Origin: Pyropia yezoensis
Lineage: Eukaryota > Rhodophyta > Bangiophyceae > Bangiales > Bangiaceae
Direction of reading: 5' to 3'
Assembly: GCA_009829735.1 (NCBI GenBank)
Contig: CM020618.1
Coordinates: forward strand, 7,717,119-7,781,118
Length of the DNA stretch: 64,000 nucleotides
The notes under the pieces were generated by a model. That model searched no databases, had not been told where the DNA came from, and saw only the letters and a list, made by a program, of their open reading frames with translations. Of this stretch, positions 17,601-53,989 are shown one piece after another. The position numbers and the translations under genes were made by a program. Each line of letters starts with the position of its first letter. Positions within the stretch are counted from its first letter, which is position 1.

Positions 17601-20232
17601 CGGGAAGAAGTGTTCACGCGGGATGTCGCCGCTATCGACGCCGTGTCAGACGGCGTCAAGCCTGCCACCCACTGTCCACGCCGTGGGGTCCAGCGCGACC
17701 CGGCATGCAAAGTCCGGATTTGAGTCAAAACCGGACTTTGCCCTCTGCACCGCGGTGCGTGTCGGTCCATGCTGCCGCGTTCTGTGCAAATACATTTTGG
17801 ATATCGTATTTGTGCGCTGACACTCCAATCCCCGCCATCACACATTGCCACTGGTCGGTAGTGGGGTGCGTCGAAACAAAGCCGTGTCACCGACCAATCA
17901 GCATCGACACCGAAACACTGTACGTATGGCGACGCGGGAAGAAGTGTTCACGCGGGATGTCGCCGCTTTCGATGCCGTGTCAGACGGCGTCAAGCGTGCC
18001 ACCCACTGTCCACGCCGTGGTGTCCAGCGCGACCCGGCATGCAAAGTCCGGTTTTGAGTCAAAACCGGACTTTGCCCTCTGCACCGCGGTGCGTGTCGGT
18101 CCATGCTGCCGCGTTCTGTGCAAATACATTTTGGATATCGTATTTGTGCGCTGACACTCCAATCCCCGCCATCACACATTGCCACTGGTCGGTAGTGGGG
18201 TGCGTCGAAACAAAGCCGTGTCACCGACCAATCAGCATCGACACCGAAACACTGTACGTATGGCGACGCGGGAAGAAGTGTTCACGCGGGATGTCGCCGC
18301 TATCGACGCCGTGTCAGACGGCGTCAAGCCTGCCACCCACTGTCCACGCCGTGGGGTCCAGCGCGACCCGGCATGCAAAGTCCGGTTTTGAGTCAAAACC
18401 GGACTTTGCCCTCTGCACCGCGGTGCGTGTCGGTCCATGCTGCCGCGTTCTGTGCAAATACATTTTGGATATCGTATTTGTGCGCTGACACTCCAATCCC
18501 CGCCATCACACATTGCCACTGGTCGGTAGTGGGGTGCGTCGAAACAAAGCCGTGTCACCGACCAATCAGCATCGACACCGAAACACTGTACGTATGGCGA
18601 CGCGGGAAGAAGTGTTCACGCGGGATGTCGCCGCTTTCGATGCCGTGTCAGACGGCGTCAAGCCTGCCACCCACTGTCCACGCCGTGGGGTCCAGCGCGA
18701 CCCGGCATGCAAAGTCCGGTTTTGAGTCAAAACCGGACTTTGCCCTCTGCACCGCGGTGCGTGTCGGTCCATGCTGCCGCGATCTGTGCAAATACATTTT
18801 GGATATCGTATTTGTGCGCTGACACTCCAATCCCCGCCATCACACATTGCCACTGGTCGGTAGTGGGGTGCGTCGAAACAAAGCCGTGTCACCGACCAAT
18901 CAGCATCGACACCGAAACACTGTACGTATGGCGACGCGGGAAGAAGTGTTCACGCGGGATGTCGCCGCTATCGACGCCGTGTCAGACGGCGTCAAGCGTG
19001 CCACCCACTGTCCACGCCGTGGGGTCCAGCGCGACCCGGCATGCAAAGTCCGGTTTTGAGTCAAAACCGGACTTTGCCCTCTGCACCGCGGTGCGTGTCG
19101 GTCCATGCTGCCGCGTTCTGTGCAAATACATTTTGGATATCGTATTTGTGCGCTGACACTCCAATCCCCGCCATCACACATTGCCACTGGTCGGTAGTGG
19201 GGTGCGTCGAAACAAAGCCGTGTCACCGACCAATCAGCATCGACACCGAAACACTGTACGTATGGCGACGCGGGAAGAAGTGTTCACGCGGGATGTCGCC
19301 GCTATCGACGCCGTGTCAGACGGCGTCAAGCCTGCCACCCACTGTCCACGCCGTGGGGTCCAGCGCGACCCGGCATGCAAAGTCCGGTTTTGAGTCAAAA
19401 CCGGACTTTGCCCTCTGCACCGCGGTGCGTGTCGGTCCATGCTGCCGCGTTCTGTGCAAATACATTTTGGATATCGTATTTGTGCGCTGACACTCCAATC
19501 CCCGCCATCACACATTGCCACTGGTCGGTAGTGGGGTGCGTCGAAACAAAGCCGTGTCACCGACCAATCAGCATCGACACCGAAACACTGTACGTATGGC
19601 GACGCGGGAAGAAGTGTTCACGCGGGATGTCGCCGCTATCGACGCCGTGTCAGACGGCGTCAAGCGTGCCACCCACTGTCCACGCCGTGGGGTCCAGCGC
19701 GACCCGGCATGCAAAGTCCGGTTTTGAGTCAAAACCGGACTTTGCCCTCTGCACCGCGGTGCGTGTCGGTCCATGCTGCCGCGTTCTGTGCAAATACATT
19801 TTGGATATCGTATTTGTGCGCTGACACTCCAATCCCCGCCATCACACATTGCCACTGGTCGGTAGTGGGGTGCGTCGAAACAAAGCCGTGTCACCGACCA
19901 ATCAGCATCGACACCGAAACACTGTACGTATGGCGACGCGGGAAGAAGTGTTCACGCGGGATGTCGCCGCTTTCGATGCCGTGTCAGACGGCGTCAAGCG
20001 TGCCACCCACTGTCCACGCCGTGGGGTCCAGCGCGACCCGGCATGCAAAGTCCGGTTTTGAGTCAAAACCGGACTTTGCCCTCTGCACCGCGGTGCGTGT
20101 CGGTCCATGCTGCCGCGTTCTGTGCAAATACATTTTGGATATCGTATTTGTGCGCTGACACTCCAATCCCCGCCATCACACATTGCCACTGGTCGGTAGT
20201 GGGGTGCGTCGAAACAAAGCCGTGTCACCGAC
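14674..20232 (+). repeat. Satellite B tandem array (334-bp unit, about 17 units)
   Basis: The motif GGACTTTGCCCTCTGCACCG recurs at exactly 334-bp steps from 15730 to 20071. The first units (14680, 15005, 15338) are diverged, and the step 15338 to 15730 is 392 bp because about 58 bp is partly duplicated. From 16063 on, units are near-identical and differ at a few marker sites: TTTCGATGCC/TATCGACGCC, AAGCGTGCC/AAGCCTGCC and GCGTTCTG/GCGATCTG. 334 is twice 167, a nucleosome-sized length. Reading frames of about 150 codons repeat every 334 bp on both strands and are by-products, since 334 is not a multiple of three. The last unit is cut at 20232 by the LTR of element A(-). Confidence 0.95.
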
Positions 20233-20700
20233 TGTGGCAAAAACCACTCGCACACACAGTACCCAAGTTGGGGCGGTGTGCGAGGGCTGCCTCCCGTGTC
20301 GGGGGAACCGGAAGAAGTGCAAGTCGCACACACTCTATCCCTGTTGTGGGGCAATCCCCCCACGGACAAACAAGAAGATGGTGTGTGGTCCAACAGTTTC
20401 TTGGTCGGGACGGGGACGCAGGGCCAAGCCCCGCTGTCCCTCCCCTTATCCCCCCAGGGTCCACTCAGAATCTCGCCACTCAGAATCTCCCACCCCAGCA
20501 CCTGCCCACCGGGCCACACGAAAATTCAAGACGATAAATGCAGAAAACCCTCAAATCCAAGTTGGATTTACTACTAAGCTAACTATCCCGAACTTAGGGA
20601 ATATGGACCCAAATGCAGGGGGAGGAACGGATCAGGCTAGTGGCCTGCCGCCCCTTGCATGGCACGTGTTGCCCCCTACCTGGGGGTCAATACTGCCACA
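20233..20700 (-). mobile_element. 3' LTR of chromovirus element A(-)
   Basis: 468-bp reverse complement of the LTR at 5199-5667, differing by scattered substitutions, with the same TGTGGCA/TGCCACA ends. On the minus strand it lies directly after a polypurine tract, so it is the 3' LTR of the element whose pol is at 23099-29355. It interrupts a satellite B unit at 20232/20233. The 5' partner is not in the window. Confidence 0.9.
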
Positions 20701-20713
20701 CTCCCCTCTCCTC
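20701..20713 (-). promoter_or_regulatory. Polypurine tract of element A(-)
   Basis: On the minus strand GAGGAGAGGGGAG abuts the start of the 3' LTR, as expected for the primer of plus-strand DNA synthesis. This tract fixes the orientation of the LTR and shows that the + strand ORF beginning 331 bp away is antisense to the element. Confidence 0.85.
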
Positions 20714-21043
20714 AGTTCCGACCGACCCGGTCGGCCCTGTGAGGGGGTGCGTAAACGCACGTCTCGGCGTTGGGGGGGGACGCGACTTGCTGTCCCCCCC
20801 TTGAGTACGTAACGCGGATGTGGAGGCGGTCACGTTGGCCGCCCCTCTCCTCAAGCTTGCCCACTTGGCAGCTTGCTCTCCTCGGTTCACACCTCACCAC
20901 CACCACCACTTCTCCTTCACCTTACACGGGGCCACCCCACGCTGGGGAGGCCACCCGTTTACCCACGATCCGAGTCCCCCTCAACTCGAGGCGGGTCTCG
21001 TGCCGCGATAGCCAGGACGTCTCTCCCCAACTTGGGGAGAGCC

Positions 21044-22987
21044 ATGGCGACTCCGGGAGTGGAGACGGACTCTCTCGATGAGCGTATGGAGGACACCTCC
21101 TACGGTGCAGCGCCTGCCGGGACTTCCGGCGGGGGCTCCGCGATCGCTCCGGGGGGTGGGACTCCCGCGTCACCCGGCTTTGGGTTGACGGCAGGATCTC
21201 CCCCGGAGGCGGGACAAGTTGTCCCGCGTGAGGCCTTGGGGCGGTGGTTTTACCCCGCTTGGCCTCTGTATGAGGAGGGGTTGACTGTTCTTCGCTGTGG
21301 CCGACTCGGCGCAGCGATGGGTCGGGTATGGGACCGCCTACGGGAGAAGTATCCCCGTAGGGTCGGGTTCCCTGCCGGCTTCAGGACGGACCAGTTTGCC
21401 TTCCTGGACGACGAGGAGGTCGAGGACGTGCAGCGGGCCAAGGCCATGGTGGACCGCGGGGGAACTATCCCGGGTCCCGGCGACTTGCCGACCTTCACTT
21501 GGGACGCGGTGGCAACTCGCCCCCCGTACCTTCACGAGGCCGATCCGCACACTCATCACTTTGATGTGCGGATGGAGAAGGACTTCCGGCGAGGTCCCTA
21601 CTTGGTGACCTCGGCTCAACTTGAGTTTCCTCAGCAGTCTGCTGCCAGTAAGGAGCAATACTACCCGAAGAAGCCCGAGTGGTGGCCTCAAGTTGAGGTC
21701 CCCTACGGGTTCCCGGCATTGTTGCCACGGTTGCTTGACCACTTCGGCTCCGTCATGTTGACGGCTGGCCCTGATCATCTGGTGTGGGCCATGTTGGCCA
21801 CCCAGTGGCTCCTCGAGGTCATGTCGACCTGGGTGTCATGTGTTCAGCGGCGGGGGATGCTCTGGCATCTCCCCCTCCGGCTCATCCAGGGTTTGGAACA
21901 GCTCACCCCTCAGCTAGTTGCTGAGGGGTGCTCGTCAGGACAACTCACTCTACTTGAGGAGATGCTCCGCCTCCACAAGTTTATCGAGTGGGAGAGCATT
22001 GAGCACAAGTTGCGCCGCCCCACTCGGGGGCCCAAGGACGATGGCGCACTTCGCCAGTTCGTGTGGGTCGCTCGTGAACTTCACGACGGCCGTGTGGTCC
22101 TACGAGAGGGGTTGGGCATCGGGGACTACCCGTATGCCCCGGGGGTGGATCGTCACACTGCGCCACCCCCGGACAAGCCCATAGTTATGGCTGTGCCCTC
22201 ATATGATGACCATATGACTCAACCTACTGCGGGGGCCCCAAGTCGGGGTCGCAGTTACACCCGGGTACCGCCACCTCGGCGTGCCCCTCCGCTTCCTCCT
22301 GTTCCTTTCCAGCCTCACGGGAACATCCCGATCAGCGTGGCCGTGGAGTCATCCACACCGGTGTCTCCCAACTTGGGGGCCACCCTCCTGACGGTATACC
22401 CCAAGTTGGTGTTACCGCCCACGCCTCTAACCTCAGAGATGATGATCACCACGTTGGTGCGCACCATTTCCTGGTTGGCCGCGTCGACCGCAACCCTCCA
22501 AAGTTCCGAGACTCCTCAACTTGAGGAGCGCGTTCGTACTGCAGTGGCGACCGCGAGTTGCGAGTCGGTGGCGGAGTTTATGACGGCCGAGTTGGCTCGC
22601 ATTGGGGCTATTATGCCCCAGCCAACCCCACTTGGGCGTGGCAAGCGTCGTGCGAGCCGGGCATACTCGCCTCCTCGCCGTCGTCGCCGTCACTCGCGGC
22701 GCTCTCCCTCCGTGTCGGAAGACGAGTTGTCTTACTCCGTCTCGGAGTCCTCTACCCCATCGGAGACGGAGTCTGTCCAGCGTCTGCGTCGCAAACTTGC
22801 GCGCAAGACCAGGCAGAAGAGTAGCCACGGTCGGCGCCACTTGCGCGACCGTGAGGGGCGCGACGGTTCCGACTTGGAGCCGCCGCCCCTTCCAACGAGT
22901 GGAGACCGTTATCGGCGTGGGTCTCGCCGCTCGCCTCCACGTGAGGGCGAGGGCCGTGGAGTGGGAGAGTCTAGCATGCGTGCCTAG
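21044..22987 (+). CDS. Antisense accessory ORF of element A(-)
   Basis: 647 codons from the ATG at 21044 (context GCCATGG); the same frame is open from 20873. It lies on the strand opposite to gag-pol, between the polypurine tract and the pol stop, ending 111 bp from it (convergent). Residues 1-80 are acidic and low complexity; about 80-400 form a complex, Trp-rich region with PEWWPQVEVPYG (211-222), HFGSV (233-237) and VQRRGMLWHLP (267-277); about 400-530 is Pro-rich; about 535-647 is rich in Arg-Ser and basic runs, like SR proteins. Similar motifs occur in the antisense frames of element C and fragment E. No family recognised. The frame is long, complex and unbroken, so I think it is translated. 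The adjacent LTR or the element's 3' region could supply an antisense promoter. Confidence 0.75.
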   Translation: MATPGVETDSLDERMEDTSYGAAPAGTSGGGSAIAPGGGTPASPGFGLTAGSPPEAGQVVPREALGRWFYPAWPLYEEGLTVLRCGRLGAAMGRVWDRLREKYPRRVGFPAGFRTDQFAFLDDEEVEDVQRAKAMVDRGGTIPGPGDLPTFTWDAVATRPPYLHEADPHTHHFDVRMEKDFRRGPYLVTSAQLEFPQQSAASKEQYYPKKPEWWPQVEVPYGFPALLPRLLDHFGSVMLTAGPDHLVWAMLATQWLLEVMSTWVSCVQRRGMLWHLPLRLIQGLEQLTPQLVAEGCSSGQLTLLEEMLRLHKFIEWESIEHKLRRPTRGPKDDGALRQFVWVARELHDGRVVLREGLGIGDYPYAPGVDRHTAPPPDKPIVMAVPSYDDHMTQPTAGAPSRGRSYTRVPPPRRAPPLPPVPFQPHGNIPISVAVESSTPVSPNLGATLLTVYPKLVLPPTPLTSEMMITTLVRTISWLAASTATLQSSETPQLEERVRTAVATASCESVAEFMTAELARIGAIMPQPTPLGRGKRRASRAYSPPRRRRRHSRRSPSVSEDELSYSVSESSTPSETESVQRLRRKLARKTRQKSSHGRRHLRDREGRDGSDLEPPPLPTSGDRYRRGSRRSPPREGEGRGVGESSMRA

Positions 22988-23098
22988 TTGGCAGCTGCCT
23001 TTGTTGTGAGAGTGTGAGGGTTAGGGCTGTAGTTTAAAGCCACTCTGCGTACCACTTCGACTTGAAGCACTCTCTTGGCACTGTTGCTCGGCCTTCCC

Positions 23099-25288
23099 TC
23101 ACGTTGAGGGAGGGCTGTTAGGGTCTATCTCGTTCCGGGCACAGTACGCCCGGACCTTCTCAGCAGGAAGGTCCTCCACATACTCCCACGTATCATCCTT
23201 GGCTTTGTAGCCAAACCAACGCACCCTCAACATGAGGCGGTCAGTATCCTCATCCCAGCCGTGGTCGATGAACTTGTCGAACACGTACTCCTGCGGGCCC
23301 TGTTTGGCTGCAGGCAGCGAGGGCAGGCGCCACGTTTTCAAAGCACGCGCCCAAGCTGGGTCACCTGCAGGCGGTGGTGCAACTTTGACCACGTCCTGTC
23401 CGTTCACTGTGCGGACCCCATCGTCACTTTCGATGGTGAAGCGCCGCCCATCAGTACGAAGGACCTGGTACGGCCCCTTCGTCTGGAACACCAACTTACC
23501 CCCAGTTGGGGTGTGTGAGTGGACCAATACCCAGTCACCCTGCTCGGGGACATGCTTGGCGTTGCGCACCTTTTTGTCAAAGGTACGCTTGTAGCGCTTT
23601 TGTGCTTTGTCCATCTCAGCCCTGACTTTAGGGATGAGGTTTTCAAGCCTAGCAGCGAACTCCGCCTTACTCTCAGTAGGAGTGGGCGTACTGCCACCAT
23701 CCTCCCTAGTTGGGAGCGGCCGCCGCACGGCAATAGACCGCACGCGACGGGGGGTCACAAAAGCGAGGGGTACTTCCCCGGTAGATGAGTGAACCTGCGA
23801 ATTGTAGGCAGTGGTCAGAATAGAAATGTATTGGTCCCACGTCTTCACGTGCTCACTCACATAATGGCGCAGCTGCCTAACAATAGTTTTGTTGAAGCGC
23901 TCCACCTGCCCATTAGTTTGTGGGTGGTAGGGGTGGCATAGTTTGCCTTAACCCCCAACATATCCAGCACTCCTTGAAACAGTACAGACGCAAATTGCGG
24001 TCCATTGTCCGATAGTGTACTATCCGGAATGCCATACGCGGCAACCCAGTGATCTAGGAAGGCTGACACGACCGACATGGCCGTGATCTCTGCCAGTGGG
24101 ATCGCTCGAGTAAGTTTCGTGAAGCGGTCACAGATGACCAGGAGGTACTGGTTGCCCTCCTCGGTCACTGGCAGTGGCCCAAGGATGTCCATCGCCAACG
24201 CGGCGAAGGGCTCCTTGGCCGGGAACAATAGCATAGCCGTAGTAGGCCGCCGTTCCATCAGACGGTTTTGTGCACAACTTGTGCAGGCAGCCACCCAACT
24301 GTAGATGTCCACCACCATGGACGGCCAGTAGTACCTGGTCCTCAGGGTCTGGTACAGTTTACTAGACCCCAGGTGTCCACCCGTGGGAGCGTTATGCTCC
24401 CTCTCAAGGATACTGTCCTTGAGGGATGCGGGGACGACAAGTTGTTCGGTCCCCTGGAATACCCCCCTCCTCATGAGGAGGCCATCGTCTCCCAGGAAGA
24501 ACCGCGTCTCCGCCACTGTATCCAGGGTATCCCTCTGCGACTTGCAGAAGGGATCCTCGGCCTGGGCCTTCACTACTTCGTCCAGGGACAGGGGCAAGTA
24601 CTTCTTGTTCCCTGGCGCCTCGGGATTCAACGCCTGACCCGAGCGCGTGACTACCCCCACGATGGGGATGTCCTCATCGACTGGGGTGGTGTCCAGTCCC
24701 TCGGTAGGTACCCGAGAGAGGCCGTCGGCAAGGGCATGTTGCCTGCCAGGTCGGTACTCAATATCAAAGTTGAAGGGTGCAAGTCGCACCCTCCACCGGT
24801 TGAGACGAGTGTTCGTACAGTCCGTCTTGAAGATGAACTGCAACGCGCGGTGGTCACAGCGGATGAGGAACTTCTCACCCTCTAGGTAGTGACGAAGTGA
24901 CGTCACCGCCCATACCACTGCGAGTCCTTCCAACTCGGTGACTCCGTAGTTCTTCTCGGCCGAGTTTAGCCCCTTGCTGAAGTATCCCACCGGCAAGTAC
25001 TCCTTGTCCGGCTGTTGCTGAAGCAACACACAACCAAGTTGGTCGTAGCTAGCGTCCACATCCAGGATGTAGTGGCCTCCCAACCTGGGAATAGCCAGGA
25101 TAGGGGGCTTCAGCAGAAGGTCCCGAAGAGTCTCAAAGGATTCCTGCTCCACCCGACTTGGGGGAGGCAGGTTCTTCGGTAGCGTTGAGCTCACTAACTC
25201 ATTCAACGGCTTCGCCACTTTGGCGAAGCCCTTAGTGAAACGTCGGTACACGTTACACATCCCGAGGAAGCTCCTCATCTGGGTCTGG
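23099..25288 (-). CDS. pol: Pol of element A(-), 3' part as seen in the left contig
   Basis: Minus-strand end of pol: end of RT, RNase H, integrase and a C-terminal chromodomain. Integrase has the HHCC zinc-binding region, then the catalytic Asp of MDILGPLP, the Asp of LSDNGPQF and the Glu of the HPQTNGQVERFN region. The chromodomain (about 23110-23270) carries VRWFGYKAKDDTWE, which places the element among chromoviruses; such domains direct integration to marked chromatin. The frame breaks only at 23931-23934, where a G run is one base shorter than at 26204-26208 in the overlapping contig, so the break is probably a consensus error. The stop is TGA at 23099-23101. Confidence 0.85.
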
Positions 25289-25788: not shown

Positions 25789-28700
25789 TGAGTGGACCAA
25801 TACCCCAGTCACCCTGCTCGGGGACATGCTTGGCGTTGCGCACCTTTTTGTCAAAGGTACGCTTGTAGCGCTTTTGTGCTTTGTCCATCTCAGCCCTGAC
25901 TTTAGGGATGAGGTTTTCAAGCCTAGCAGCGAACTCCGCCTTACTCTCAGTAGGAGTGGGCGTACTGCCACCATCCTCCCTAGTTGGGAGCGGCCGCCGC
26001 ACGGCAATAGACCGCACGCGACGGGGGGTCACAAAAGCGAGGGGTACTTCCCCGGTAGATGAGTGAACCTGCGAATTGTAGGCAGTGGTCAGAATAGAAA
26101 TGTATTGGTCCCACGTCTTCACGTGCTCACTCACATAATGGCGCAGCTGCCTAACAATAGTTTTGTTGAAGCGCTCCACCTGCCCATTAGTTTGTGGGTG
26201 GTAGGGGGTGGCATAGTTTGCCTTAACCCCCAACATATCCAGCACTCCTTGAAACAGTACAGACGCAAATTGCGGTCCATTGTCCGATAGTGTACTATCC
26301 GGAATGCCATACGCGGCAACCCAGTGATCTAGGAAGGCTGACACGACCGACATGGCCGTGATCTCTGCCAGTGGGATCGCTCGAGTAAGTTTCGTGAAGC
26401 GGTCACAGATGACCAGGAGGTACTGGTTGCCCTCCTCGGTCACTGGCAGTGGCCCAAGGATGTCCATCGCCAACGCGGCGAAGGGCTCCTTGGCCGGGAA
26501 CAATAGCATAGCCGTAGTAGGCCGCCGTTCCATCAGACGGTTTTGTGCACAACTTGTGCAGGCAGCCACCCAACTGTAGATGTCCACCACCATGGACGGC
26601 CAGTAGTACCTGGTCCTCAGGGTCTGGTACAGTTTACTAGACCCCAGGTGTCCACCCGTGGGAGCGTTATGCTCCCTCTCAAGGATACTGTCCTTGAGGG
26701 ATGCGGGGACGACAAGTTGTTCGGTCCCCTGGAATACCCCCCTCCTCATGAGGAGGCCATCGTCTCCCAGGAAGAACCGCGTCTCCGCCACTGTATCCAG
26801 GGTATCCCTCTGCGACTTGCAGAAGGGATCCTCGGCCTGGGCCTTCACTACTTCGTCCAGGGACAGGGGCAAGTACTTCTTGTTCCCTGGCGCCTCGGGA
26901 TTCAACGCCTGACCCGAGCGCGTGACTACCCCCACGATGGGGATGTCCTCATCGACTGGGGTGGTGTCCAGTCCCTCGGTAGGTACCGAGAGAGGCCGTC
27001 GGCAAGGGCATGTTGCCTGCCAGGTCGGTACTCAATATCAAAGTTGAAGGGTGCAAGTCGCACCCTCCACCGGTTGAGACGAGTGTTCGTACAGTCCGTC
27101 TTGAAGATGAACTGCAACGCGCGGTGGTCACAGCGGATGAGGAACTTCTCACCCTCTAGGTAGTGACGAAGTGACGTCACCGCCCATACCACTGCGAGTC
27201 CTTCCAACTCGGTGACTCCGTAGTTCTTCTCGGCCGAGTTTAGCCCCTTGCTGAAGTATCCCACCGGCAAGTACTCCTTGTCCGGCTGTTGCTGAAGCAA
27301 CACACAACCAAGTTGGTCGTAGCTAGCGTCCACATCCAGGATGTAGTGGCCTCCCAACCTGGGAATAGCCAGGATAGGGGGCTTCAGCAGAAGGTCCCGA
27401 AGAGTCTCAAAGGATTCCTGCTCCACCCGACTTGGGGGAGGCAGGTTCTTCGGTAGCGTTGAGCTCACTAACTCATTCAACGGCTTCGCCACTTTGGCGA
27501 AGCCCTTAGTGAAACGTCGGTACACGTTACACATCCCGAGGAAGCTCCTCATCTGGGTCTGGGTCCGGGGGTACTGAGCCTTGCGGATGGCCCTCAAGTT
27601 TTTCTCGTTGACACTGAGACGCCCCGGACGGACAACATGTCCCAAGTACTCCACCTCTTGAGTGAAGAGGTGGCACTTACTCGCCTTCAGTGACACTCCG
27701 GCGTCAGCAAGTAGCTTGAACACCTGGCCAAGATGGCCAATGTGTTCCTCCGGACTTCGGGAGAACACAATGATATCGTCTAGGTACACGAGACAGATCT
27801 GCCACCGTACTCCGGCCAGAATCATGTCCATAGCGCGCTGGAAAGTTGCCGGCGCGTTACACAGGCCAAACGGTAGACGCTTGCACTGGTAGGTACCACA
27901 GTGACAGGTAAAGGTAGTTTTATGCCTGTCCTCCGGGGCAATGGGAATTTGCCAGTACCCCGCGTTACAGTCCAGGGTAGAGAACACGTTTGCCTCCCCC
28001 AGAGAGTCCAGACAGTCATCCATCCGAGGTAGGGGATAACTATCCTTCACCGTGCTCTCGTTGAGCTTACGGTAGTCGATACAGAACCGGGGGGTCCCAT
28101 CAACTTTGGGGACGATCACCACCGGACTCGCCCACTCGGCGTTGCTGGCCTCGATCACATCGAGGGCCTCCATGCGAGCAACTTGCTCCTTAACGAGGGC
28201 CCTTGAACGGGGTCCTCCCCTATACGGTTGTTGGCGTATAGGGGGCGCACCGGGTTTCAACTCGATCCGGTGTTGGGTAGCTCTCATGAGTCCCAATTGA
28301 CCATCCCACAACTTGTGATAGTGGTCCAAGAGGCGTTCAACTTGAACCCTCAACCTGGGTGGAACACCCTCCATGTTTACCTGGGGCCGAGGAGAGGCGG
28401 CCGACTTGGCTTGATGCTTCTCCTTTCCGGACTTCGGGTCGCTACTTGCGCCCGCGCTGAGGGTGACCGCTGCTACCGGTCCCTCGTGTTGGTCGATATA
28501 GCCGAACTTGGCCCCCGACTTGAAGAACTTGGGCGACGAGCTCAGGTTCATCACCTGGATCCTCCACGGGACTCCGGCTTTGGAGTCCATCGTGCCAAGG
28601 GCAACATGCACTTGGTGCTTGCGAGCAAGACGGGGGTTAGGGTGCACCAACCCGTTCCCCGCATAATCAGTTACAACATCCACGTGCGCCACCGAGTTGG

Positions 28701-29355
28701 GGGGCAACATGACTTTACGGGCTAAACGCAGAGTAGCAGTAAACCCTTCCCTCACAGAACAAACAGGCTTCGACTGTGAAACTGTCACAGGAGCCACAGA
28801 CTTTCCCTTACCAAGGATGGGGATAGTCTCCCCATTCATCAACTTGACCCAGTACTCAGGGCCACAAATCAAAGGCACTTGTGTTACGACATAAGGGGTA
28901 CCCAGAAGCAGGGGTACCGATATATTCTCAACTACACCATAGGTCACGTCGACCTCATGGGTCCCCAACCGAGTTGGTAGGGTCACGGCACCAACGATGG
29001 GAAGTACCCCACCATTGATATCGATCAGATGGTCAGCTTTAGACTTCCAGCGTTGGAGCCTCATCCCCTTTGGTAATAGCGACTTGCGTATCAAGGAGGC
29101 TCCTGACCCGGTATCAAGTACGATACGGGCACAACAGGCGCGGCCGGGGGCAAGTTGCACCCGTCCAGCCACCTGGAAGTTCTCACCCGTCAACACCGCG
29201 ATGACCCGACGTGGGTTTACGTTCTTGGGAAGTCCCACCCGAGGTGGGCGGACTCCCTTAGGTCGCCGCAGTATCCGACACGGTTGGTTCGTCCTCTTGG
29301 CCCACTTGGCCGAGGCTGCCGTTGTGAGCTTCGGACGACCAGCTCCAACGGTCAT
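25789..29355 (-). CDS. pol: Pol of element A(-), as seen in the right contig
   Basis: From the ATG at 29355 (in the -1 frame of gag): protease DTG at 29107-29115, RT YLDD at 27775-27786, RNase H, then integrase and part of the linker. It is 93% or so alike, by eye, to A(+) over the shared part. The frame breaks at 26986-26987, where CC is CCC in the left contig (24711-24713), and near 25803-25806, where CCCC is CCC; both look like homopolymer consensus errors. Taken together the two contigs support an unbroken pol from protease to chromodomain, making this the least damaged pol in the window. Confidence 0.88.
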
Positions 29356-29364
29356 TCGTTTCCC
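29319..29364 (-). promoter_or_regulatory. Predicted -1 frameshift signal, element A(-)
   Basis: Slippery GGGAAAC (29364-29358 on the minus strand), spacer GAATGA with the gag stop, then CCGTTG and GAGCT pairing with AGCTC and CAACGG around a 10-nt loop, with one bulged A. The stem base GAGCT has an A-U pair where A(+) has G-U. Confidence 0.7.
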
Positions 29365-30357
29365 GCCGACTTGGCGTCCGAATCTGAGGGCGAAGGGGAC
29401 GACGACGAGTCCGAGGACGACGTGTCCGCCCCCTCCGTCGAGGGTGTGGCGACCGCCACCACTGGTCGAGACCCACCCTCGCGGCGTGAGCGCACTTCGT
29501 TCGTAGCCGACTTCTTACTCGCATTCCTAACAAGCTGTTGGATGCGTTTACTCAACTTGGGGCAATCATATGCCCAGTGACCATCGGAGTTGCAGTTCCA
29601 ACACCGATGATCAGTTCCCGGAGGGGTCTTCCCAACTGGGGAAGACGACGAGGTACCTTGGGAAGTTCCCACGGCGGCTACCACCCTCTCCTTGCGGATT
29701 CGGCGTGCCTCTCGCAACTCTCTGGCCTGGCGCGCCTCTTCCCGTTCCTTGGCCAACTCGGCCTGACGCTCCTGGCGTTGTTCCTCCCGCAACTTGCGGT
29801 AGGCCTCGCCTCTGCGGTAGGCGAACCTAGCCAACTCGGCCAGGGTCGCCCGGGCAGTGTTATGCTCCCGGGTCTCCATCCGGACTGACCAGTGGAGTCC
29901 TTCCACAAACCGACTCTTCACCACAGCTTGTGGATGAAGAAACCCACAAAGATTGTTGAGCTTACGGACCCGCTCCGCAAAGGACAACTCGTCCTCCGCC
30001 TCTTCCTGATGGGCTTGCGTAAACTCCTCGACTTGAGAAGCCAACGCTGCCTCATCAACCATGGCTCTCAACAACCAGTTGACGAGCTCCAAATAGGACG
30101 TCACCTCCCCAGCGCCTCCACTTGAGGAGCTGGGCATGGCGGACATTAGTTCTGTCCGTAGGTCGCCCTTCGAAAACTCCTGTAGCATGTAAAAAGCCAT
30201 GCCTTCACTTATGGCATTGTCGTCACAGGCTTTTGTGAAACGACGTAGGAACTCAAAGACACGGAGGGGGGGAGTTCCATCCCACTCCGCTCTGTGCCCA
30301 AAAGAATGAAGTGCATTCTTCTTGGCACGGCCCATGGCTCGGGCCTGGTCAGGACCA
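29352..30357 (-). pseudogene. gag: Gag of element A(-), 5'-truncated
   Basis: Contains the last 330 or so residues of gag: the helical capsid-like region, a Glu/Arg-rich stretch and an intact zinc knuckle CWNCNSDGHWAYDC (CX2CX4HX4C, near 29565-29605), then a Ser/Asp-rich tail ending Gly-Asn-Glu-stop. Compared with A(+) the first half of gag, the leader and the 5' LTR are missing: identity stops at 30357, where integrase of element B begins. The join shares TGGTC with both parents. The frame has an ATG at 30335 but this corresponds to an internal Met of the full-length protein. Confidence 0.85.
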
Positions 30358-33191
30358 AGATGAAGCGGCTTCCGCTCTTACTGGCAGGCAACGGGCCAAG
30401 GATGTCAATTGACAACTCGGTCATTGGTTCCAAAGATGGGAACAGGGTGAGTGGTGTCGTATACTTTCGCAGCGCCAACCGGTTTCGTGCACAAGTGGTG
30501 CAATTGGGGATAGTGCTGTGGATATTAGATACCATGGACGGCCAGTAGAACTTTCTTCTCATGGTGAAGTACATCTTGTTCATGCCCAGGTGGGCGGCGG
30601 AGGTCGCCATATGTTGGAGCTTCATGATGTTTCCTTGTTGCGACTTGGGTATGACCAGTTAGATTCCATACGGTGTCTTGCGACGCAGCGCGTTGTCGTC
30701 GTCAATGATGAACGACTTGTGACCTCCCTTGGCAATGCTGTCCATGATTGACTTGCAGAAATCATCCGATTGCTGCTTGTTTATGACATCGTAATAGTCG
30801 ACGGGAGTCGGGTCAGACTTACCCGTGTACCGATGGGTTTGAACGCCGTGTGCCGTCTGGGCAACCGCCAGGCATGGAATGTCATCGTTGATGGGTTCAG
30901 TAACTGCGTTGTTGTCCGCTCTGGACAGAAAATTGGACAAGTGGTGGCTGGCACCAGGCTTGTACTTGAGTTCGAAGTCAAACTCCGCTAGACGCATACG
31001 ACATCGCATTAGTCGCCCGCTTGAATCGGCAGTGCTGTATATCCAGCTAAGGCTCTGGTGGTCCGAGCGGATCACAAAGCGTTGACCATCGAGAAAGTGC
31101 CTCAATTTGAGGACAGCCCACACGATGCCTAGGCATTCTCTGTCCGTTGTGGAGTAGTTGAGCTCCGCTGTGTTGAGTGCTCGGCTCCAATAACCAACCG
31201 GTTGTAGGTTGCCGTCATCGTCTGATTGGAGCAGCGTGCACCCAAGTTGATACGCACTTGCTTCGACAATTAGTGTCAGTTGACGTCCGGCCTTTAGTAA
31301 GGCTAAGATGGGAGGGTGCACCAGGGCGTCACGGAGGTCTTCAAAGGCGGCCTGCTCCTCATCTGAGGGTGGCGCCAAGTCCGGTGGGATTTCCTTCTTT
31401 GTCAACGCGTAGAGCGGTCGTGCTCGCTTAGTGAAGTCGACTACAAATCGTCGGTAGACGTTGCACATGCCGAGGAACCTCTTGAGTTGGGTCTTGGTCT
31501 TGGGGAATGTCGCGTGACACAGCGCTTCCGTGTCCTGGTTTACAAGGTGGAGTTTTCCAGGTGTTATGGAGTGGCCGAGGTACTCCACCTCGTTGGAGAA
31601 CCACTTGCACTTCTCAAGATTGAGTGTAACGCCCGCTTTCCTAAGTCGGGTGAGGGCGGTGTCTACATCATGGATGTGTTGTTTGGCGGTTGCCGAAAAT
31701 ATAATGAAGTCGTCGAAGTAGACTAGGCAAACTTGCCACTTGAGTCCGGACAGGATAATGTCCAGGGCTCGTTGGAAAGTTGCCGGCGCGTTGGTCAAGC
31801 CGAATGGCATTGTTGTCCAGTCGAAGATGCCGTAGTGCGTCGTGAAGGCCGTCTTTTCTTGGTCCTCCTTTCGCAGTGGTACTTGCCAATACCCGGCAGT
31901 GCAGTCGAGAGACGTAAAGACCTTGGCGTCTCCTAGGGAGCCGAGGCAGTCTTCCATACGAGGAAGAGGGTACGCATCCTTCTTTGTGACGCTGTTCAAT
32001 CGTCGATAATCGACGCAGAACCGGGCCTTCCCGTTCTTCTTCGGGACAATGACGACGGGACTGGCCCAGTTGCTGTGGCTTGGTTTGGTAACCTTCAGCT
32101 TCAACATCTTGTTGATCTGGTCGACAAGAATCGCCCGTTTGAACGCACCGGATCGGTATGGTTGAGCTCGTATGGGGGCGACCCCCGGTGGGGTGACGAT
32201 GGCATGTTCAGAAGCGTGTATGACTCCGAGAGTCCCGTCCCACATCTTGCCATGTTTGGCTAGCATCGTCTTGATTTTGCGCATGCGAATACTCAGGCAC
32301 ATCTTGAAGGCAGATGTCATCGTGTGAAAGTGTAGCTTGCTCGTCCTTCGGCGCCGCCGGATCGTCTTTCTCCGTTGGAGCCGTGAGTACTTGACCGAGG
32401 TTTTGTTCGGCGAGCGCCACAATGCTACCCTTGCGGATGATGGTCATGTCTGGCCCGAAGTTGCACACCTTCACCAGGAATGGTTCGTTCGGGTTGACTG
32501 TTGCAACTCCTCGGGCACTTGCCGTTCACTTGTGTCTGCAAAGACGTGCGTTTGGCTGCTGCGTAACCAGGCCGGGGACTTCCCATCTGACGATGATCCA
32601 ATGTTCGGTCTTGCCGTTGACTCGTGTTTGCTTACACGCGCGGACCTTGGATGATCCTTCGGACCATTGTGGTTCCATACCATTCTTGTACTGGATGCCC
32701 AAGATGGGAGAGTGAGCCGTCAAACGATCGTTCGAGGATTGCGAAACGATACGTTTGAGTCGGGGCCAGATTGCCTCCACGTGCTTGTCCACAAGCCCGG
32801 TGCCGAGGATGCATTTGACCGACAGGTTCGGGGTAACGTAGAACCGTTCAAAGGCTTGAGCCCCCCCGGTGTTGATGAGCAGGTGGATGCCTTGTGGCGC
32901 GTTGATCGTTTGCCCATTGGCATCAACCACGTGCGGGGCCTTGTGCAGGGTTGTCGCGTGGTCACGCCAATGTGGCGGCAAGACATCCGGTCGGATGAGG
33001 TTGACACCTGCCCCGGTGTCAAGTATGGGCCTAAAGCTTCGCGTATTCGCTAGCTCAGTGCCGATACAGGCTGCGATCTCATAGTGCCGATGGGCTTGGC
33101 TTAGGATCTTGGTGATCTTACGTCTTGTGGGTCGTTTGGGCGAGGGTGCGTCGGGGACACTGCCCGCCGGTCCTCGACTTACTCGTTTTTT
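30358..33191 (-). pseudogene. pol: Pol of Ty3/gypsy element B(-), broken and 3'-truncated
   Basis: Read in the -1 frame from gag. Protease has a canonical DTGAG (33012-33020). RT has YFDD (31709-31720) in place of YLDD, with LPRMEDC and FLGMCNVYRRF. In RNase H the first catalytic Asp is Glu (VEAS, codon 31262-31264). The integrase zinc-binding region and the first catalytic Asp (SIDILGPLP) are present, then the sequence fuses to element A gag at 30357/30358, so the rest of integrase and the 3' end are lost. Damage: in-frame TGA at 32526-32528, a one-base shift near 32288 (extra T), and in-frame TAA at 30659-30661. The protein is clearly a different family from A. Inactive. Confidence 0.88.
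33150..33191 (-). promoter_or_regulatory. Predicted -1 frameshift signal, element B(-)
   Basis: Slippery AAAAAAC (33191-33185), in phase with gag as A AAA AAC, then GAGTAA with the gag stop, then GTCGAGGAC (33178-33170) pairing with GTCCCCGAC (33158-33150): 8 of 9 pairs around an 11-nt loop. The -1 frame stays open from here through the protease. The A AAA AAC heptamer is a well-known retroviral type. Confidence 0.75.
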
Positions 33192-43621: not shown

Positions 43622-44991
43622 ATGGACCAAGAGGAGCGTGGTGCGGGTCAAGCGTACGTGGCGGTCCATGGCATGGTATCCGAAGACTATGGTTCTGAGA
43701 CGGTCCACGCATGGCGCCGAGAAATGGCCCGCGGATGGGTCACGGGTACCATGGCTCACAAGGTCCTTCGGGTCGGTGACTGGTCCTGTCCCGGGAACGC
43801 GTTCCGGAAACAGATGGCCGTCATGCCCCAAGCTCGGGTCCTTGTCAAAGCCGATTGATCCCAGTCGGTAACGGTGGTTTGGCAAGCGGGAGAGGCCGGG
43901 TACGTGGTGCTCTTCAAGGGCATCCGTGACGAGGTTACCAAGGGGACACTACCTGCGGCCCCGGGTCCCGACTACCTCGTGCTTCCATCTTCTTATCTGG
44001 ACCCCGCTTCCTTCAAGCCGTCCCATGGGGACCTGGTGATCAGTCGGCTCCATCGGGACAAGAACGGGATCCTCGTCGGGTGGCACCAGCAAGAGGTCCC
44101 CAGTTGCCCGGCTACCCTCCGTGGGCTCCACTACCTCCGGGTACCCCACTGGTTTGGTCATGTCGAGGTTCCCTTTGGGGCCCTGATGGAGCTGCCTCTG
44201 GTCAGTGCTACTTCGGAGACCTCCTTCGTAGCTCGGATCCCTTTGCCTGTTTCGTGTTTCGGACAGGGTAGGCCATTAACTGTGCCCTGTACACCCTGGA
44301 GCGGGCCCGTGGTTCTGGTGAGGTGTGCCTTCTTCCTCGTCTCCTTCGTACCTGGATCGAACTTGTCGGGGCCCTGAATATCTGTAAGGGTCCCAGTGGC
44401 GTGGACGAGGGAGCAGTGCGGGACCTCAAGGCACTCATGGTTCTTAGTGACCGGGTGGTCTGAGCCCCGGGGCTCCGTCCACGTTTGGGTCAGGCGGCTT
44501 CCAACCGCAAGGACCGTACTTCCTTCGTCCAGGATCGGTTCGAGACCCCGGACGGGACCCGGGCGACGCTCGTGGACGAGGACCTGGCTCCCTTGGACCT
44601 TCCCGATTCCTCGGACATCCTGGACGCTCCGGAGTTTAACGGGCCCAAGGACGGGAACGTGGGTCAGTCGGACGAAATTGCGCCCGTGACAGGGTCCGGT
44701 GGTCCTGGTGCCCGATCGTCGGGCTTTCTTGTTCAACGTGACCCTACTCTTGGGAGCCGCATTGTCTACGTTGCTAACCTACTGGCCCATGGCGAGGTAC
44801 CGGATGAGGAACTTCGGGACCTTTAGGGCAACCTGGCTACCTCGACGGTTCTGGGGCTCCGAAGTTTCTTTGGCGGTTCCGCGGACGTCTTGGCTCATGC
44901 TCAGGTGGGGCCCTTGCTCTCGGCTTCCCTCCACACTACGGTCAGCATTGGGTCCCGTGTAGCCGAATCCAAACCAGCCCTGACGAGGTGA
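43622..44991 (+). pseudogene. Antisense accessory ORF of element C (right contig), broken
   Basis: Starts at the ATG 43622 (MDQEERGAGQ), acidic like the N-terminus of the element A antisense protein. The frame has TGA at 43856-43858, changes frame between 44180 and 44205, then has TAG at 44269-44271, TGA at 44461-44463 and TAG at 44824-44826, ending at TGA 44989-44991; between the breaks it reads as complex protein. PHWFGHVEVPFG (ending 44179) matches PEWWPQVEVPYG of element A; the ungapped 30 residues up to that Gly show 11 identities by eye. CYFGDLL and GEVCLLPRL follow at positions equivalent to the FGSV and HLP motifs. Relic of the same family. The next 356 bp (44992-45347) before the pol stop hold nothing I recognise. 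Confidence 0.7.
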
Positions 44992-45347: not shown

Positions 45348-48300
45348 CTAAATAACCTTAGTCCTGTCGAACTTATAGCTCGGTTCCCACGTGTCCTCGG
45401 ACTTTGCGTATCCCCAACAGCGGACGAGGAGCCATAGGTTCCCATTACTGTCCCGGTCGTGTCCCACAAAACGTTCCAAGACAAACGGGGTGCCTGAGTC
45501 TTCGTGGTTCAGAGGTACAACCGGGTCTGGTGGCCCGTGTAGACGGGACGTGGAGTCAGTGTGACCAGCAGGCGTGGGTGCCCGGGCCACATGGTCACTG
45601 ATCACCCTGTCACGGATCCCAACCAGAACCGTGAATGTGTGTCCGTCCAGGTCCACGATACGATAGGGACCCTTGACTTTCTGGTCGAACTTCTGCCGGC
45701 TGTCATCATTGGTATCAACGTAGACCCAGTCACCTGTACGTAGGGCCTCGTTGACCGGAGTGACCCGCTTGTCGTACCCTCTCTTGTACCGTTTCTGTGC
45801 CAGGTTCAGGCTCTTACGTACCGTAAAGACCAGGTTCCTTAGATGGGCCCGTTTCGCCTCTCGGACCTGTCGCGCGGTACCAGTGAATTCCTCAGGGTAC
45901 TGGGAACCAGGAAGCTTGTCCAGGGCAAAGGTACGCACTCGTTCCGTTATCACGAACTCACATGGGGCCACACCAGAACTCTGTTGGGGCCTCGTGTTAC
46001 AGGCAACCGTGAGCACGGAAACTAACTCGTCCCAATGGTCCTGGTGGTCCTCCACGTACGTGCGAAGCTGGGGCACTATGGTACGATTAAACCGTTCCAC
46101 TTGTCCTTGGGTCTGGGGATGGTACGTGGTGAAGGTAACATGCTTGATCCCAAGGAGCCCACAAACGCCACGGAAGTATGTGAATGCTAGCTGAGGACCA
46201 TTGTCCGTCAGTTTGGTCTCCGACGAACCATAGGAAGCCACCCATGTATCCAGAAACGCCGATTCCACCACTTCCGCGTCCTGGCTTCCAAGGGGAACCA
46301 CTCGGGTCAGCTTGGTAAAACGGTCCACAATAATAAGAAGGTACCGGTTCCTGCTGACTGTCCAGGGTAAAGGGCCCAAGAGGTCAACGCACACGTCCTT
46401 GAAGGGCTCCGTTGCAGGGAACAGCTTGAGCGGGTTGGTCCGCCGTCTCCCTTGGGGTCCGCTCTTGGAACACGAGGAACAGTTGGAAACAAAGGCGTGC
46501 ACATCTGCCACCATAGACTCTCAATAAAATACGAGCCTCATAGACGTGTACATCTTGTTCATGCTTGGGCGCCCTGCGTGTCCCGGTTCATTTTCCAATG
46601 TCAGGACCTCTTCTCGTAGTGCCTGGGGGACCACGATCTGGACCGCTCGGTCAAGGGGAGCCAATCGTACCAGTAACCCTTCCGGCGTTTCCCCGTACCT
46701 TGAGTTCACGTTCTGGTCCATCTCCTTCCGTAGTTCCTGGCAAAGCTCGTCCTGACCTTGGGCCTTGAGGATCCTGTCGACTGTGAGAGGAGGGAACCGG
46801 GGGCCTGTCTTGAATTTCGGCCGGGTCCAACCAGTAACAAAATAAGCCAAGGTCAACAGCGAGGGTATCTCGTCAGGTATTGGGCCCCTGTCGTATCCTG
46901 TGATATCCAAGCGTGACATAAAGTCCGCTGCGTGATGATGCTGCCCGGGAGGGGACTCAATGGTAAACTGGAGCTCGGCCAGCCGAAGGCGCCAGCGGGC
47001 GAAATTTCCATGGGACCCGTCCATGTCTAACATCCACTTCAGTGCCGTATGGTCCGTTCGTACCACAAAGCGTGTCCCTTCAAGGTACGGTTGTAACAGA
47101 AACAGAGCGCAAACAACGGCAAGACACTCAGGCTCCGAGGTACTGTAGCAGCACTCAGCCGGAGTCAGCACACGGCTCCAGGAACCCGCAAGCTGGTTGG
47201 CCCCGTCTCCTTGGTCCTGTAGCAAAACGCACCCTATCTGGGTTGCGCTAGCATCCGTATCAACAATGTACTGACCCGTGCGCTTTGGAAGAGCTAGAAC
47301 GGGAGTGTGGGTCAGACGGTACTTGAGCTTTTCAAAAGCGTCCGTCTGGGCCGTGGTAGACAGGGATAACGGGTCTGGGACCTTGGTACTGGTCATGGCC
47401 AATAGGGGTCCTGCTACCTTGGCGTAGTCCTTGAGAAAGCGCCGGTACACATCGCACATCCCTAGAAAGATGCGAAGGTCCTTTTTGGTCCTTGGAGTCT
47501 TAGCGTCCCGGAGCCCAGCCAGGCTCTTCTCGTTCACACGGAGCTGACCCTTACCAACAATGTACCCGAGATACTCAACTTCATCATGGAACAAAAAGCA
47601 CTTGGTAGCCTTGAGGGAAACACCGGCCCTAGCGAGTAACTCGAGGATCTCTTCCACATGGGCCAGGTGCTTCTTAGGGTCCTTGGAGAGCACGACAATG
47701 TCATCCAGGTACACAAGGCACGTCCTCCACTTAACCCCAGACAGGATCATTTGAATGGCCCTCTGGAACGCAGCCGGGGCGTTGGTAAGACCAAATAGGT
47801 GCCGGATGTATCTCAAGGTTCCTTTGTGACAAGTAATGGTAGTCTTGTCTTGGTCCTCAGTAGGCACAGCGATCTGCCAGTAGCCACAGTCGGCGTCCAG
47901 CAAGGAAAATACGGTAGCCACTCCCAGGAAATCGATACAATCGTCCATGCGCGGTAACGGGTACGTATCCTTAACAGTGACCTCGTTCAAGCGCCGGAAA
48001 TTCACACAGATCCTGAGGGTACCATCGAGCTTTGGGACCGAGACAACCGGGAAGGACCACTCAGCTTGGGGCGGTTCAATGACCACGAGCCTGGTCTGCT
48101 TTTCCACTGGTTCCTTGATGAGCTCCCGATGATGGAGCCCGGTACGGTACGGTTGGAACCGAATGGGTTTGGCCCCTTCCTTGGGGGTTATCCGGTGAGG
48201 GGTCACTTCAGTACGTCCAAATTGCCTGTTCCATAGGTCCCTGTAACGGTCCAGAAGATCGCGTACAGCCTGGTGTAGCTCAGGTGGGATAAGTTCATAC

Positions 48301-52183: not shown

Positions 52184-53989
52184 ATGTTGAACCCTCAGGT
52201 GCCCGGGGGCGAGGACGACCTCCTGCTTGAGAAGGAGGAGGTGATGCAGGACGACGTTCCCGTCTCCGCCACCGCTGCCGAGTGCTTCCTGGCGAGCTCG
52301 TCGGACGCCGACGAATGTGTGACCGTCCATGTGGCTGCGGAAGGCGCGCCGGGCGGGTAGTCGTCCGTCTGCAGCGGCACGACGGCTCCGTCGGGGGGCG
52401 TTCAACCGCGTGTGGCGGCTTCTACCCCTACTCCTCCGGCGGCCCGGATGGCTCCTGTCGCCGGTGCCGGCGTGGCTCAACCTCAAGAAGGTGCAGCTGG
52501 TGCTTCTGACGGTCGTGGCGGCACCCTGGCCGGGACGGCGGGTCAAGACGGCGCGGGTTCCCGCCTTGTTGGTGGTCCTTCCTCGGGGGTGGTCGACGGG
52601 TCGACCCCCTCCGCCCCCGTTGGGCCTTCGTCGGGCCCGGGTGGCGACGGCAATCTTCCCGCGGTGCCGCGGGCGACAGGTGGTCAAGACGTGTCTGCCC
52701 CGATGGCGGTGGACACCGGGAGCTACTTCGGGCGGGCGCCCGCCCTTCTTTTTCCTGCTCGCCCCCATGCGCCTGCGGCGCCGGCTCATCTGCCGGTGGG
52801 GCTTCCCCCGGCGCCACCGATTCTTCCTGGGCCCGCCCGGGTTGCCCCGCTGGGTGGCTGCGTCGCTTTGGTTGCGGGGCACCCCTCTATGTCGGTGTCC
52901 GACTTGGTGGCTCGGGTCCGAGGCCTCACCGTTCAAGAGTCCATGGACTCCGCTGGGCGGATGCGGGTGGACTTTCACCCACCGAGCCACCGTGGAGGGT
53001 CCTCCCGGCGCGTCATGTCGGACCCGAGTTGGGAGCGGGAGTTGGCGCGGCTGGTCAACCAGCCGAACGCGGTCCGGGTGGAGCATCATTGGATCCTGAG
53101 TCAGCCGGACGACCGGCATGCACAGCTCTGGCGCACCCGGGTGGGGCGGGGTGAAGTCTTGCTCGACCCCGCCTTCGGGATATGCGACTTGGTTGCCCCC
53201 GCGTTGCCGCGGGAGGTTGACTACCCGGCAAGTGCTCGAGGGGTTGCGTCTGCGGTGGATCCTGTGGCGTTCGGGCAGACGGTGGGCGATACTGGTCGGT
53301 ATCCCGGGTTCGAGTACTTCCCGGGGATATCCCCGTATCTGACGTTGACAGCTCTGTATCCGCCCATGGCGGGGCTGAAGTCGGCGTCGAGGTGGCGACG
53401 CAACCATGGAGTCATGGCGGATGCGTTCCCCACCGATATAACGTGTGTGCTGCAGACCGGCAACGGTCGCGCACCGGTGTCCACTCCCGTGCGCCCGCCT
53501 CTGTGGCAGGAGGGGTGGGAGCCCGCCCCGGCTTTCCGGTTTGACACCTGCTCCTGTCTCCGATACTTCGGTAGTGTGTTGGCCTCCCGGCCGGTCCATC
53601 TGTTGCAGGGGACCTTTACCCTCGAGGTTACCCTCGGCCAGGCTTCCTCCTTCTTGCTGTCCGTCCGTCGGCAGGGGCGGCTGTTTCATCTTCCGACGAG
53701 TGTCCGTCGGCATATCGGGCAGCTGGTCGTAGATATGATAGCTGCCAAGACCGGGTTGGCCCGGGAGTTCGAGGCCCTCCTGGCCGTTCACGATGCCGTG
53801 AACTGTGCTGGGGTGTTGACTTCTCCCCCGTACCGGGACCCGCAGGCTGGGGCTGCCCCCTTGCCTTGTCACTCGTTGCGCATCCGGCGTACTCAGCCGG
53901 GTGAACCCAGTTACCGTGGGTGGGCATCCACCGAGGCTGTTCATGACCTGGGTATTCCCATGGTTTCCATGACCATCTCCAGGTCTTAG
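52184..53989 (+). pseudogene. Antisense accessory ORF of fragment E
   Basis: 601 codons from the ATG at 52184 to the TAG at 53987-53989, with one premature in-frame TAG at 52358-52360; both sides are the same phase. The N-terminus is acidic (GGEDDLLLEKEEVMQDD), then Pro/Ala/Gly-rich, then complex. Shared with element A: RYFGSVL (near 53560) for DHFGSVM, and VRRQGRLFHLP (near 53662-53695) for VQRRGMLWHLP, at the same spacing to within a few residues; EYFPGISPY (near 53310) may match EWWPQVEVPY. It lies on the + strand right after an LTR and polypurine tract that point the other way, the same arrangement as in element A. No known family. Confidence 0.65.

What the first reader, a model, noticed from the sequence alone, without database searches (positions are those of the whole stretch)
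21044..22987. Opposite-strand accessory protein in chromovirus A, shared with C and E
A 647-codon frame runs antisense between the polypurine tract and pol stop of element A(-). Frames in the same position in element C (43622-44991) and next to the LTR of fragment E (52184-53989) share motifs: PEWWPQVEVPYG/PHWFGHVEVPFG, FGSV/FGDL/FGSV, VQRRGMLWHLP/VRRQGRLFHLP, in the same order and at similar spacing. Three divergent copies with common motifs argue for selection on an antisense protein. Antisense genes are known in a few plant LTR elements, but I know of no such family here.
Basis: partly seen in the sequence, partly recalled or inferred. Interest (0 to 1): 0.92.

Follow-up and report, generated by a model that had tools for sequence, protein, structure and literature searches.

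The report
Backward accessory gene in seaweed retrotransposons
Several families of a virus-like jumping element in a red alga carry an extra gene read in the opposite direction to their other genes; its protein has been kept by natural selection, resembles no known family in the databases searched, and its job is still unknown.

Summary
In chromovirus A (minus strand) a 647-codon frame on the other strand (21044-22987) lies between the polypurine tract (20701-20713) and the pol stop (23099-23101). It is homologous to frames in the same place in four other lineages of this genome (profile P-values A-C 1e-9, E-C 8e-5, A-E 6e-5; shuffled and reversed controls 0.026 or worse) and to two predicted Pyropia vietnamensis proteins. 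In A, C1, C2, C3 and E copies the pol end lies tail-to-tail with it. The protein is under purifying selection: C1-C2 dN/dS 0.28 (bootstrap 0.22-0.34). Corrections: the window's C and E copies are broken (five stops and a frameshift; one stop), and C appears twice through a probable assembly duplication. No Pfam, PDB-sequence or fold match was found. The arrangement is a known kind, an antisense aORF between pol and 3' LTR (Grande, RIRE2, Retand, Boty); the protein family and its red-algal host appear new. I infer a trans-acting, probably nuclear accessory protein; transcription and function are untested. Family A also carries about 20 unexplained AASTT-centred palindromes.

The parts
21044..22987 (+). 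Antisense accessory ORF (aORF) of chromovirus A, 647 aa, intact; RS/arginine-rich tail
   Evidence: 104 of 104 scored genome copies have no stop in the 399-aa query stretch; 150 of 150 scored copies identical over a 100-aa core; both lists capped
20714..21043 (+). 330-bp stretch between PPT and aORF ATG; presumed leader/promoter of the antisense gene (inferred, no transcript data)
   Evidence: anatomy only
20701..20713 (-). Polypurine tract GAGGAGAGGGGAG of element A
   Evidence: sequence directly upstream of the TG that opens the LTR
20233..20700 (-). 3' LTR of element A, about 468 bp, TG...CA; 96% identical to the 5' LTR of element B (5199-5667)
23099..23839 (-). C-terminal end of pol A (integrase tail and chromodomain-like end) with stop, convergent with the aORF; stop-to-stop gap about 110 bp
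   Evidence: Pfam Chromo E 1.3e-4, 22.2 bits, under the 25.1 cut-off
26926..29514 (-). pol A: reverse transcriptase, RNase H, weak protease match
   Evidence: RVT_1 3.6e-36, RT_RNaseH 1e-30; Asp_protease_2 E 0.089, under its cut-off
29352..30377 (-). gag A (CCHC zinc knuckle); match to element B ends at 30357, where A appears truncated
43622..44991 (+). Degenerate C-type aORF (stops, frameshift); duplicate at 36502-37871
45348..46520 (-). pol end of element C (integrase, weak chromodomain match), convergent with the C-type aORF; duplicate at 38228-39400
   Evidence: rve 9.5e-9; Chromo E 0.018, below cut-off
52184..53989 (+). E-type aORF, one internal stop; in 5 of 8 E loci examined a divergent pol end lies convergent with it

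Best explanation
The frame is a real, selected protein-coding gene of a group of chromovirus-type Ty3/gypsy elements in a red alga, inferred to be Pyropia/Neopyropia yezoensis. It lies between pol and the 3' LTR, on the strand opposite to gag-pol, tail-to-tail with pol. It was probably present before lineages A, C1, C2, C3 and E diverged and has been inherited with pol (inferred from parallel divergence; exchange between lineages is not excluded). Its dN/dS is about three times that of pol between C1 and C2, and 1.3-1.7 times within them. Most likely working (inferred): a transcript starts in the roughly 300 bp between the PPT and the ATG, or in the 3' LTR, runs against the genomic RNA and is translated into a soluble protein. 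In A this has an arginine/serine-rich tail with an RRRRR run, which points to the nucleus. The protein acts in trans on the element's nucleic acid or chromatin to favour its spread: regulation of transcription or counter-silencing, or else nuclear entry/integration. That it is a selected gene is shown by sequence (about 0.9). That it is a nuclear regulator is a guess by analogy (about 0.4).
For: Homology of A, C and E frames. Family search with a C piece: 114 matches (some loci give two pieces) in classes of about 86, 57, 54, 46 and 36% identity, most with no stop inside. Pol end on the opposite strand past the aORF stop in 26 of 28 A loci, 7 of 9 C1 and 8 of 9 C2 loci fetched with 2.5-kb flanks, 2 of 2 C3, 5 of 8 E. 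83 of 104 listed A copies have a listed pol end on the opposite strand at the window's offset, 81 exactly. dN/dS L026-L035 0.275 (bootstrap 0.22-0.336); neutral simulation gives a median of 9 stops, 0 of 500 runs stop-free. Frame +0 over 117 C1-C2 pairs: median 0.285; frames +1, +2, -0, -2: 1.1-2.1; frame -1, which shares the wobble base: 0.42, but with median 13-24 stops per group. Relatives in P. vietnamensis: MMPV_008445 against A, BLASTP E 1.6e-13. Core of the C type predicts as a compact domain (best of five models pLDDT 75.5, pTM 0.78).
Against: No transcript or protein evidence. Within families aORF dN/dS (0.45, 0.46) exceeds pol (0.34, 0.27) on the same loci; the one C3 pair gives 0.72 with little contrast to other frames. 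28 of 80 scored E copies have stops (my count). Copies were found by protein similarity, which favours conserved, intact frames. Family A copies are too alike to test selection: 25 of 28 loci differ from the window copy at 0-12 of 1944 bases, syn and nonsyn mixed. 67 of 150 listed pol ends have no aORF in the capped aORF list. No fold or family match points to a function; the first structure job on the longer core was poor (pLDDT 34). The basic/RS tail is in A only; C and E have no comparable tail.
Confidence: 0.85

Rival explanations
1. The open frame is a by-product of GC-rich DNA or of an unnoticed sense-strand gene; no antisense protein is made.
For: GC about 60-67% makes long frames commoner; at E the minus strand also has a 661-codon frame; frame -1 also shows a low dN/dS of 0.42.
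Against: 0 of 2000 Markov sequences reach 724 codons; frame -1 has medians of 13-24 stops in the groups tested; protein-level similarity persists at 21-67% identity between subfamilies.
Confidence: 0.04
2. Antisense transcription itself is the function: the transcript pairs with genomic RNA to form dsRNA or to tune expression, and the protein is secondary.
For: By geometry the genomic RNA is complementary to the whole aORF; the review notes such a role as possible and compatible with a protein (PMC7264820, part 2).
Against: Differences fall by codon position, not evenly: L026-L035 169/124/311 at positions 1/2/3.
Confidence: 0.08
3. A captured host gene, or the gene of another mobile element, carried along.
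For: Origin is open: the only hits with an organism name are from Pyropia vietnamensis, the rest bear no organism.
Against: Not related to the element's own (truncated) gag: hhalign E 0.07-0.48, shuffle level. No Pfam match of note. Found beside pol in five lineages.
Confidence: 0.1
4. An envelope- or movement-like protein.
For: Position between pol and 3' LTR.
Against: Opposite strand, so not a spliced product of the genomic RNA; no membrane span (maximum 19-residue Kyte-Doolittle 0.98-1.39 in one A, one C1, one C2, one E protein).
Confidence: 0.02

Closest known systems
[quoted passage not shown]
   Same: Same place and orientation; present in most copies of a family; long; no clear homologs; Grande's product is nuclear and has its own promoter
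   Different: Hosts there are flowering plants or a fungus; Retand is a non-chromovirus lineage (PMC11963269, passages). Here pol ends in a chromodomain-like stretch and the host is a red alga. Sequences of those proteins were not compared directly, apart from the PF04195 model; whether Boty has a chromodomain was not checked
TRP28 (Transposase_28, PF04195) proteins of Retand elements (PMC11963269, passages)
   Same: Antisense, between pol and 3' LTR; TRP28 is suggested to bind DNA
   Different: No PF04195 match in 30 family members or in the genome (whose control genomes also did not ring)
VANC anti-silencing proteins of Arabidopsis VANDAL transposons (PMC5735166, passages)
   Same: Accessory protein of a transposon; a short motif enriched in the same element and rare elsewhere
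   Different: Other type of transposon; motif is a fixed 9-mer mainly in non-coding, tandemly repeated stretches. Here the motif is a palindrome with a fixed core and variable arms, seen in family A only, and no binding is shown
HTLV antisense gene, as mentioned in PMC7264820 part 2
   Same: Antisense transcription from a promoter in the 3' LTR of a provirus
   Different: Animal retrovirus; no sequence comparison made

Membership tests
[quoted passage not shown]
   A: PPT 20701-20713 and pol stop 23099-23101. C1/C2: element edge TGTAGCG, PPT-like tract, aORF, then pol
Antisense aORF-3R class | Opposite strand to gag-pol | tested here: met
   83 of 104 listed A copies at the fixed offset
Antisense aORF-3R class | Present in most copies of the element family | tested here: inconclusive
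   Of 150 listed pol ends, 83 match an aORF in the capped list of 104; the true share is unknown
Antisense aORF-3R class | Transcribed from its own antisense promoter | not testable with these tools
   no RNA data
Retand TRP28 (PF04195) proteins | Match to the PF04195 domain | tested here: not met
   no PF04195 match among 30 members at E 0.5; genome search empty, but its controls did not ring
Chromovirus (the carrier) | Ty3/gypsy order RT, RNase H, integrase in pol | tested here: met
   (protease match weak)
Chromovirus (the carrier) | Chromodomain at the integrase C-terminus | tested here: inconclusive
   A: Chromo E 1.3e-4, 22.2 bits; C: E 0.018, 15.4 bits; both under the Pfam cut-off of 25.1 bits. 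Position fits; E pol not scanned
VANC-like anti-silencing system | Sequence relation to VANC | not tested
   no VANC sequence compared
VANC-like anti-silencing system | Element-specific short motif at high density | tested here: inconclusive
   AASTT palindromes in family A; no comparable core stood out in the C element or the C- and E-type loci counted

The most novel reading that the evidence does not exclude
The aORF protein of family A is a self-recognition factor: it binds the roughly 20 AASTT-centred palindromes scattered through its own element (LTR, leader, aORF, pol, gag), as VANC proteins bind motifs in their own transposons. It thereby protects or activates only its own family, which would help explain the very recent burst of A. 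In other chromovirus lineages the protein would have diverged towards other, still unknown, targets.
Probability: 0.08. Interest if true: 0.88.

Novelty: new variant of a known kind. Interest (0 to 1): 0.6.

Why it matters
Antisense accessory genes in LTR retrotransposons are a recognised puzzle, described mostly from flowering plants with unknown function. A selected family without detected relatives among them, in red-algal chromoviruses, suggests that the arrangement arose more than once, so the position itself may be useful to such elements. The host has at least 104 A-type copies with an open aORF stretch, so the question can be asked in a young family. It also warns annotators: in P. vietnamensis these genes are filed as hypothetical proteins.

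Tried and rejected

Bias: copies came from protein searches that score only the best 80-150 candidates of 879-3935, so counts are lower bounds and lean to conserved copies. In one search the script misplaced the aORF in L048 and L050; their pol lies on the opposite strand, the other 24 A loci show it at 115 bp. Eight 2.3-kb loci (L065-L072) and six short C1 loci (L019-L024) could not show the pol end and were left out of those counts.

Full report
WHAT IS THERE. The window is part of an unnamed 107.5-Mb genome in 11 contigs, three of them large (43.6, 34.3 and 29.4 Mb). Element A lies on the minus strand: gag with a zinc knuckle (29352-30377), pol with RT and RNase H (26926-29514), integrase and a chromodomain-like end with its stop at 23099-23101, PPT GAGGAGAGGGGAG (20701-20713) and a 468-bp 3' LTR (20233-20700). 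In this copy the integrase reading frame shifts once, and the match to element B ends at 30357. On the plus strand, between pol stop and PPT, lies the 647-codon frame 21044-22987. None of 2000 Markov sequences reached its 724-codon stop-to-stop length.

IS IT A FAMILY? Within the window, tblastn links A to E (5e-6) and to C (0.004). Genome searches found 104 scored A copies, all without a stop in the 399-aa query stretch; 80 scored E copies, the window's own and 79 others at 82-90% identity, 52 of 80 without stops by my count; and 114 C-type matches (some loci as two pieces) in classes of about 86, 57, 54, 46 and 36% identity, most with no stop inside. An alignment of 13 C-type proteins shows 37 invariant columns, many of them in and around the block VRVPHWF..VEVPFG. 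hhalign gives A-C 1.3e-9 (probability 96%), E-C 7.6e-5 (62%) and A-E 6.2e-5 (65%). With 20 column shuffles per pair the best values were 0.088, 0.073 and 0.057, and one reversed alignment each gave 0.23, 0.45 and 0.026. The A-E and E-C links are therefore clear but less strong than A-C.

WHERE IS IT? In fetched copies the pol end lies on the opposite strand beyond the aORF stop: 26 of 28 A loci (24 at 115 bp as printed, two with a script slip), 7 of 9 C1 and 8 of 9 C2 loci with long flanks, 2 of 2 C3 and 5 of 8 E, at about 0.44-1.5 kb in C and E (six C1 loci with short flanks and eight 2.3-kb loci could not show it). The pol ends themselves differ strongly (against the A pol end, C1, C2 and C3 35-42% and E 27-33%), so these are distinct lineages. 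For family A, 83 of 104 listed aORF copies have a listed pol end at the window's offset, 81 of them exactly; 21 have none in the capped pol list. In the 14 C1/C2 loci looked at, the element edge TGTAGCG (GCAGCG in one) follows differing flanks, so they are separate insertions.

IS IT UNDER SELECTION? Within C1, C2 and E median dN/dS is 0.47, 0.46 and 0.50; the single C3 pair gives 0.72. Between C1 and C2, 117 pairs give a median of 0.285. The other frames give 1.1-2.1, except frame -1 (0.42), which shares the wobble base and carries medians of 13-24 stops. Bootstrap for L026-L035: 0.275 (0.22-0.336). The other four distant pairs give 0.28-0.45 over all codons, with upper bootstrap bounds below 0.62 in the core too; the close E pair L010-L013 gives 0.54 (0.41-0.70). 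A neutral simulation of the C1 frame gave a median of 9 stops and never zero in 500. Pol is under stronger constraint: 0.34 and 0.27 within C1 and C2 against 0.45 and 0.46 for the aORF on the same loci, and between C1 and C2 dN 0.08 at dS 0.89 against 0.31 at 1.07. Amino-acid identity falls in parallel in both genes (C1-C2 61% aORF, 87% pol; C1-C3 46%, 74%), as expected for a gene inherited with pol.

WHAT IS THE PROTEIN? The first search of 5.8 billion proteins with A alone found one near-identical protein. The family profile found 12 and the core profile 12, overlapping; each search scored only the 7995-7998 best candidates. The only descriptive names are two hypothetical proteins of Pyropia vietnamensis; the other hits bear no organism. 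MMPV_008445 aligns to A with E 1.6e-13 and to the C-type L070 at 46% identity. There is no Pfam family and no PDB sequence relative. AlphaFold2 on a 350-residue core gave pLDDT 75.5 and pTM 0.78 in the best of five models, mostly helical with a two-strand beta element. Foldseek and VIA-align found nothing meaningful, which leaves the fold unassigned rather than new. No membrane span was seen; A alone of the four proteins checked has an RRRRR run and an RS-rich tail.

HOW MIGHT IT WORK? Shown by sequence: homologous, selected, antisense, convergent with a chromovirus-type pol in five lineages. Inferred: transcription from the 300-odd bp between PPT and ATG or from the LTR, and a trans-acting role in regulation, counter-silencing or nuclear steps. 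The analogy is with Grande gene23, reported as nuclear and transcribed from its own promoter (PMC7264820, parts 1-2 of 3 read), and Retand TRP28 proteins (PMC11963269, passages). PF04195 was not found here (the controls did not ring).

A SECOND OBSERVATION. Family A carries AASTT-centred palindromes. Of 38 AASTT cores in element A, 20 have arms of four or more bases, against 9% for all cores (binomial 8e-12, not corrected for the 32 possible cores and the stretches tested). Element B shows 11 of 20, but is 96% identical to A and so not independent. The arms differ from site to site but stay self-complementary, up to 21 nt just before the aORF ATG. They occur in LTR, leader, aORF, pol and gag, in both orientations. 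Among seven C- and E-type loci counted, six had 0 of 26 AASTT cores with such arms and the C2 locus L035 had 3 of 7. Whether this is a binding site, a cruciform or a mutational product is unknown. It inspires the novel case but does not prove it.

VERDICT. A real accessory gene family, filed as hypothetical proteins where annotated in P. vietnamensis; new variant of the known antisense-aORF kind. Transcript, function and origin remain open.

Noticed in passing
20226-30357 (element A) and 5199-10007 (element B): About 20 odd-centred palindromes with core AASTT and variable but self-complementary arms (e.g. 21021-21041, 21209-21227, 22512-22528, 20553-20569); 20 of 38 AASTT cores in A have arms of 4 or more, against 9% for all cores. 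The 7-mer CAASTTG is absent from the C and E stretches of the window.
   Followed up: partly
25289-25788 and 41894-42393: Two runs of exactly 500 N flanked by near-identical sequence on both sides (23516-25288 and 25789-27562; 35273-41893 and 42394-49014), which looks like false duplication at assembly joins.
   Followed up: partly
14672-20232: Array of a 334-bp tandem repeat (about 15 copies, 12 of them 92-96% identical to the reference copy) directly beside the 3' LTR of element A; a relative (about 76-79%) at 34872-35230.
   Followed up: no
1-5202 and 10005-14155: Repeats spaced about 190 and 410 bp shared between the two stretches; element B ends abruptly in pol at about 10007 where this repeat sequence begins.
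   Followed up: no
G000, family A copies: Very young family: 150 of 150 scored aORF copies identical over 100 aa, and 87 of 150 scored pol ends lie in a 1380-aa frame by my count, one of them with a stop noted.
   Followed up: partly
P0007 (P. vietnamensis MMPV_002403): Predicted protein starts with about 200 residues absent from MMPV_008445 before the aORF part; perhaps a gene-prediction fusion with a neighbouring gene.
   Followed up: no
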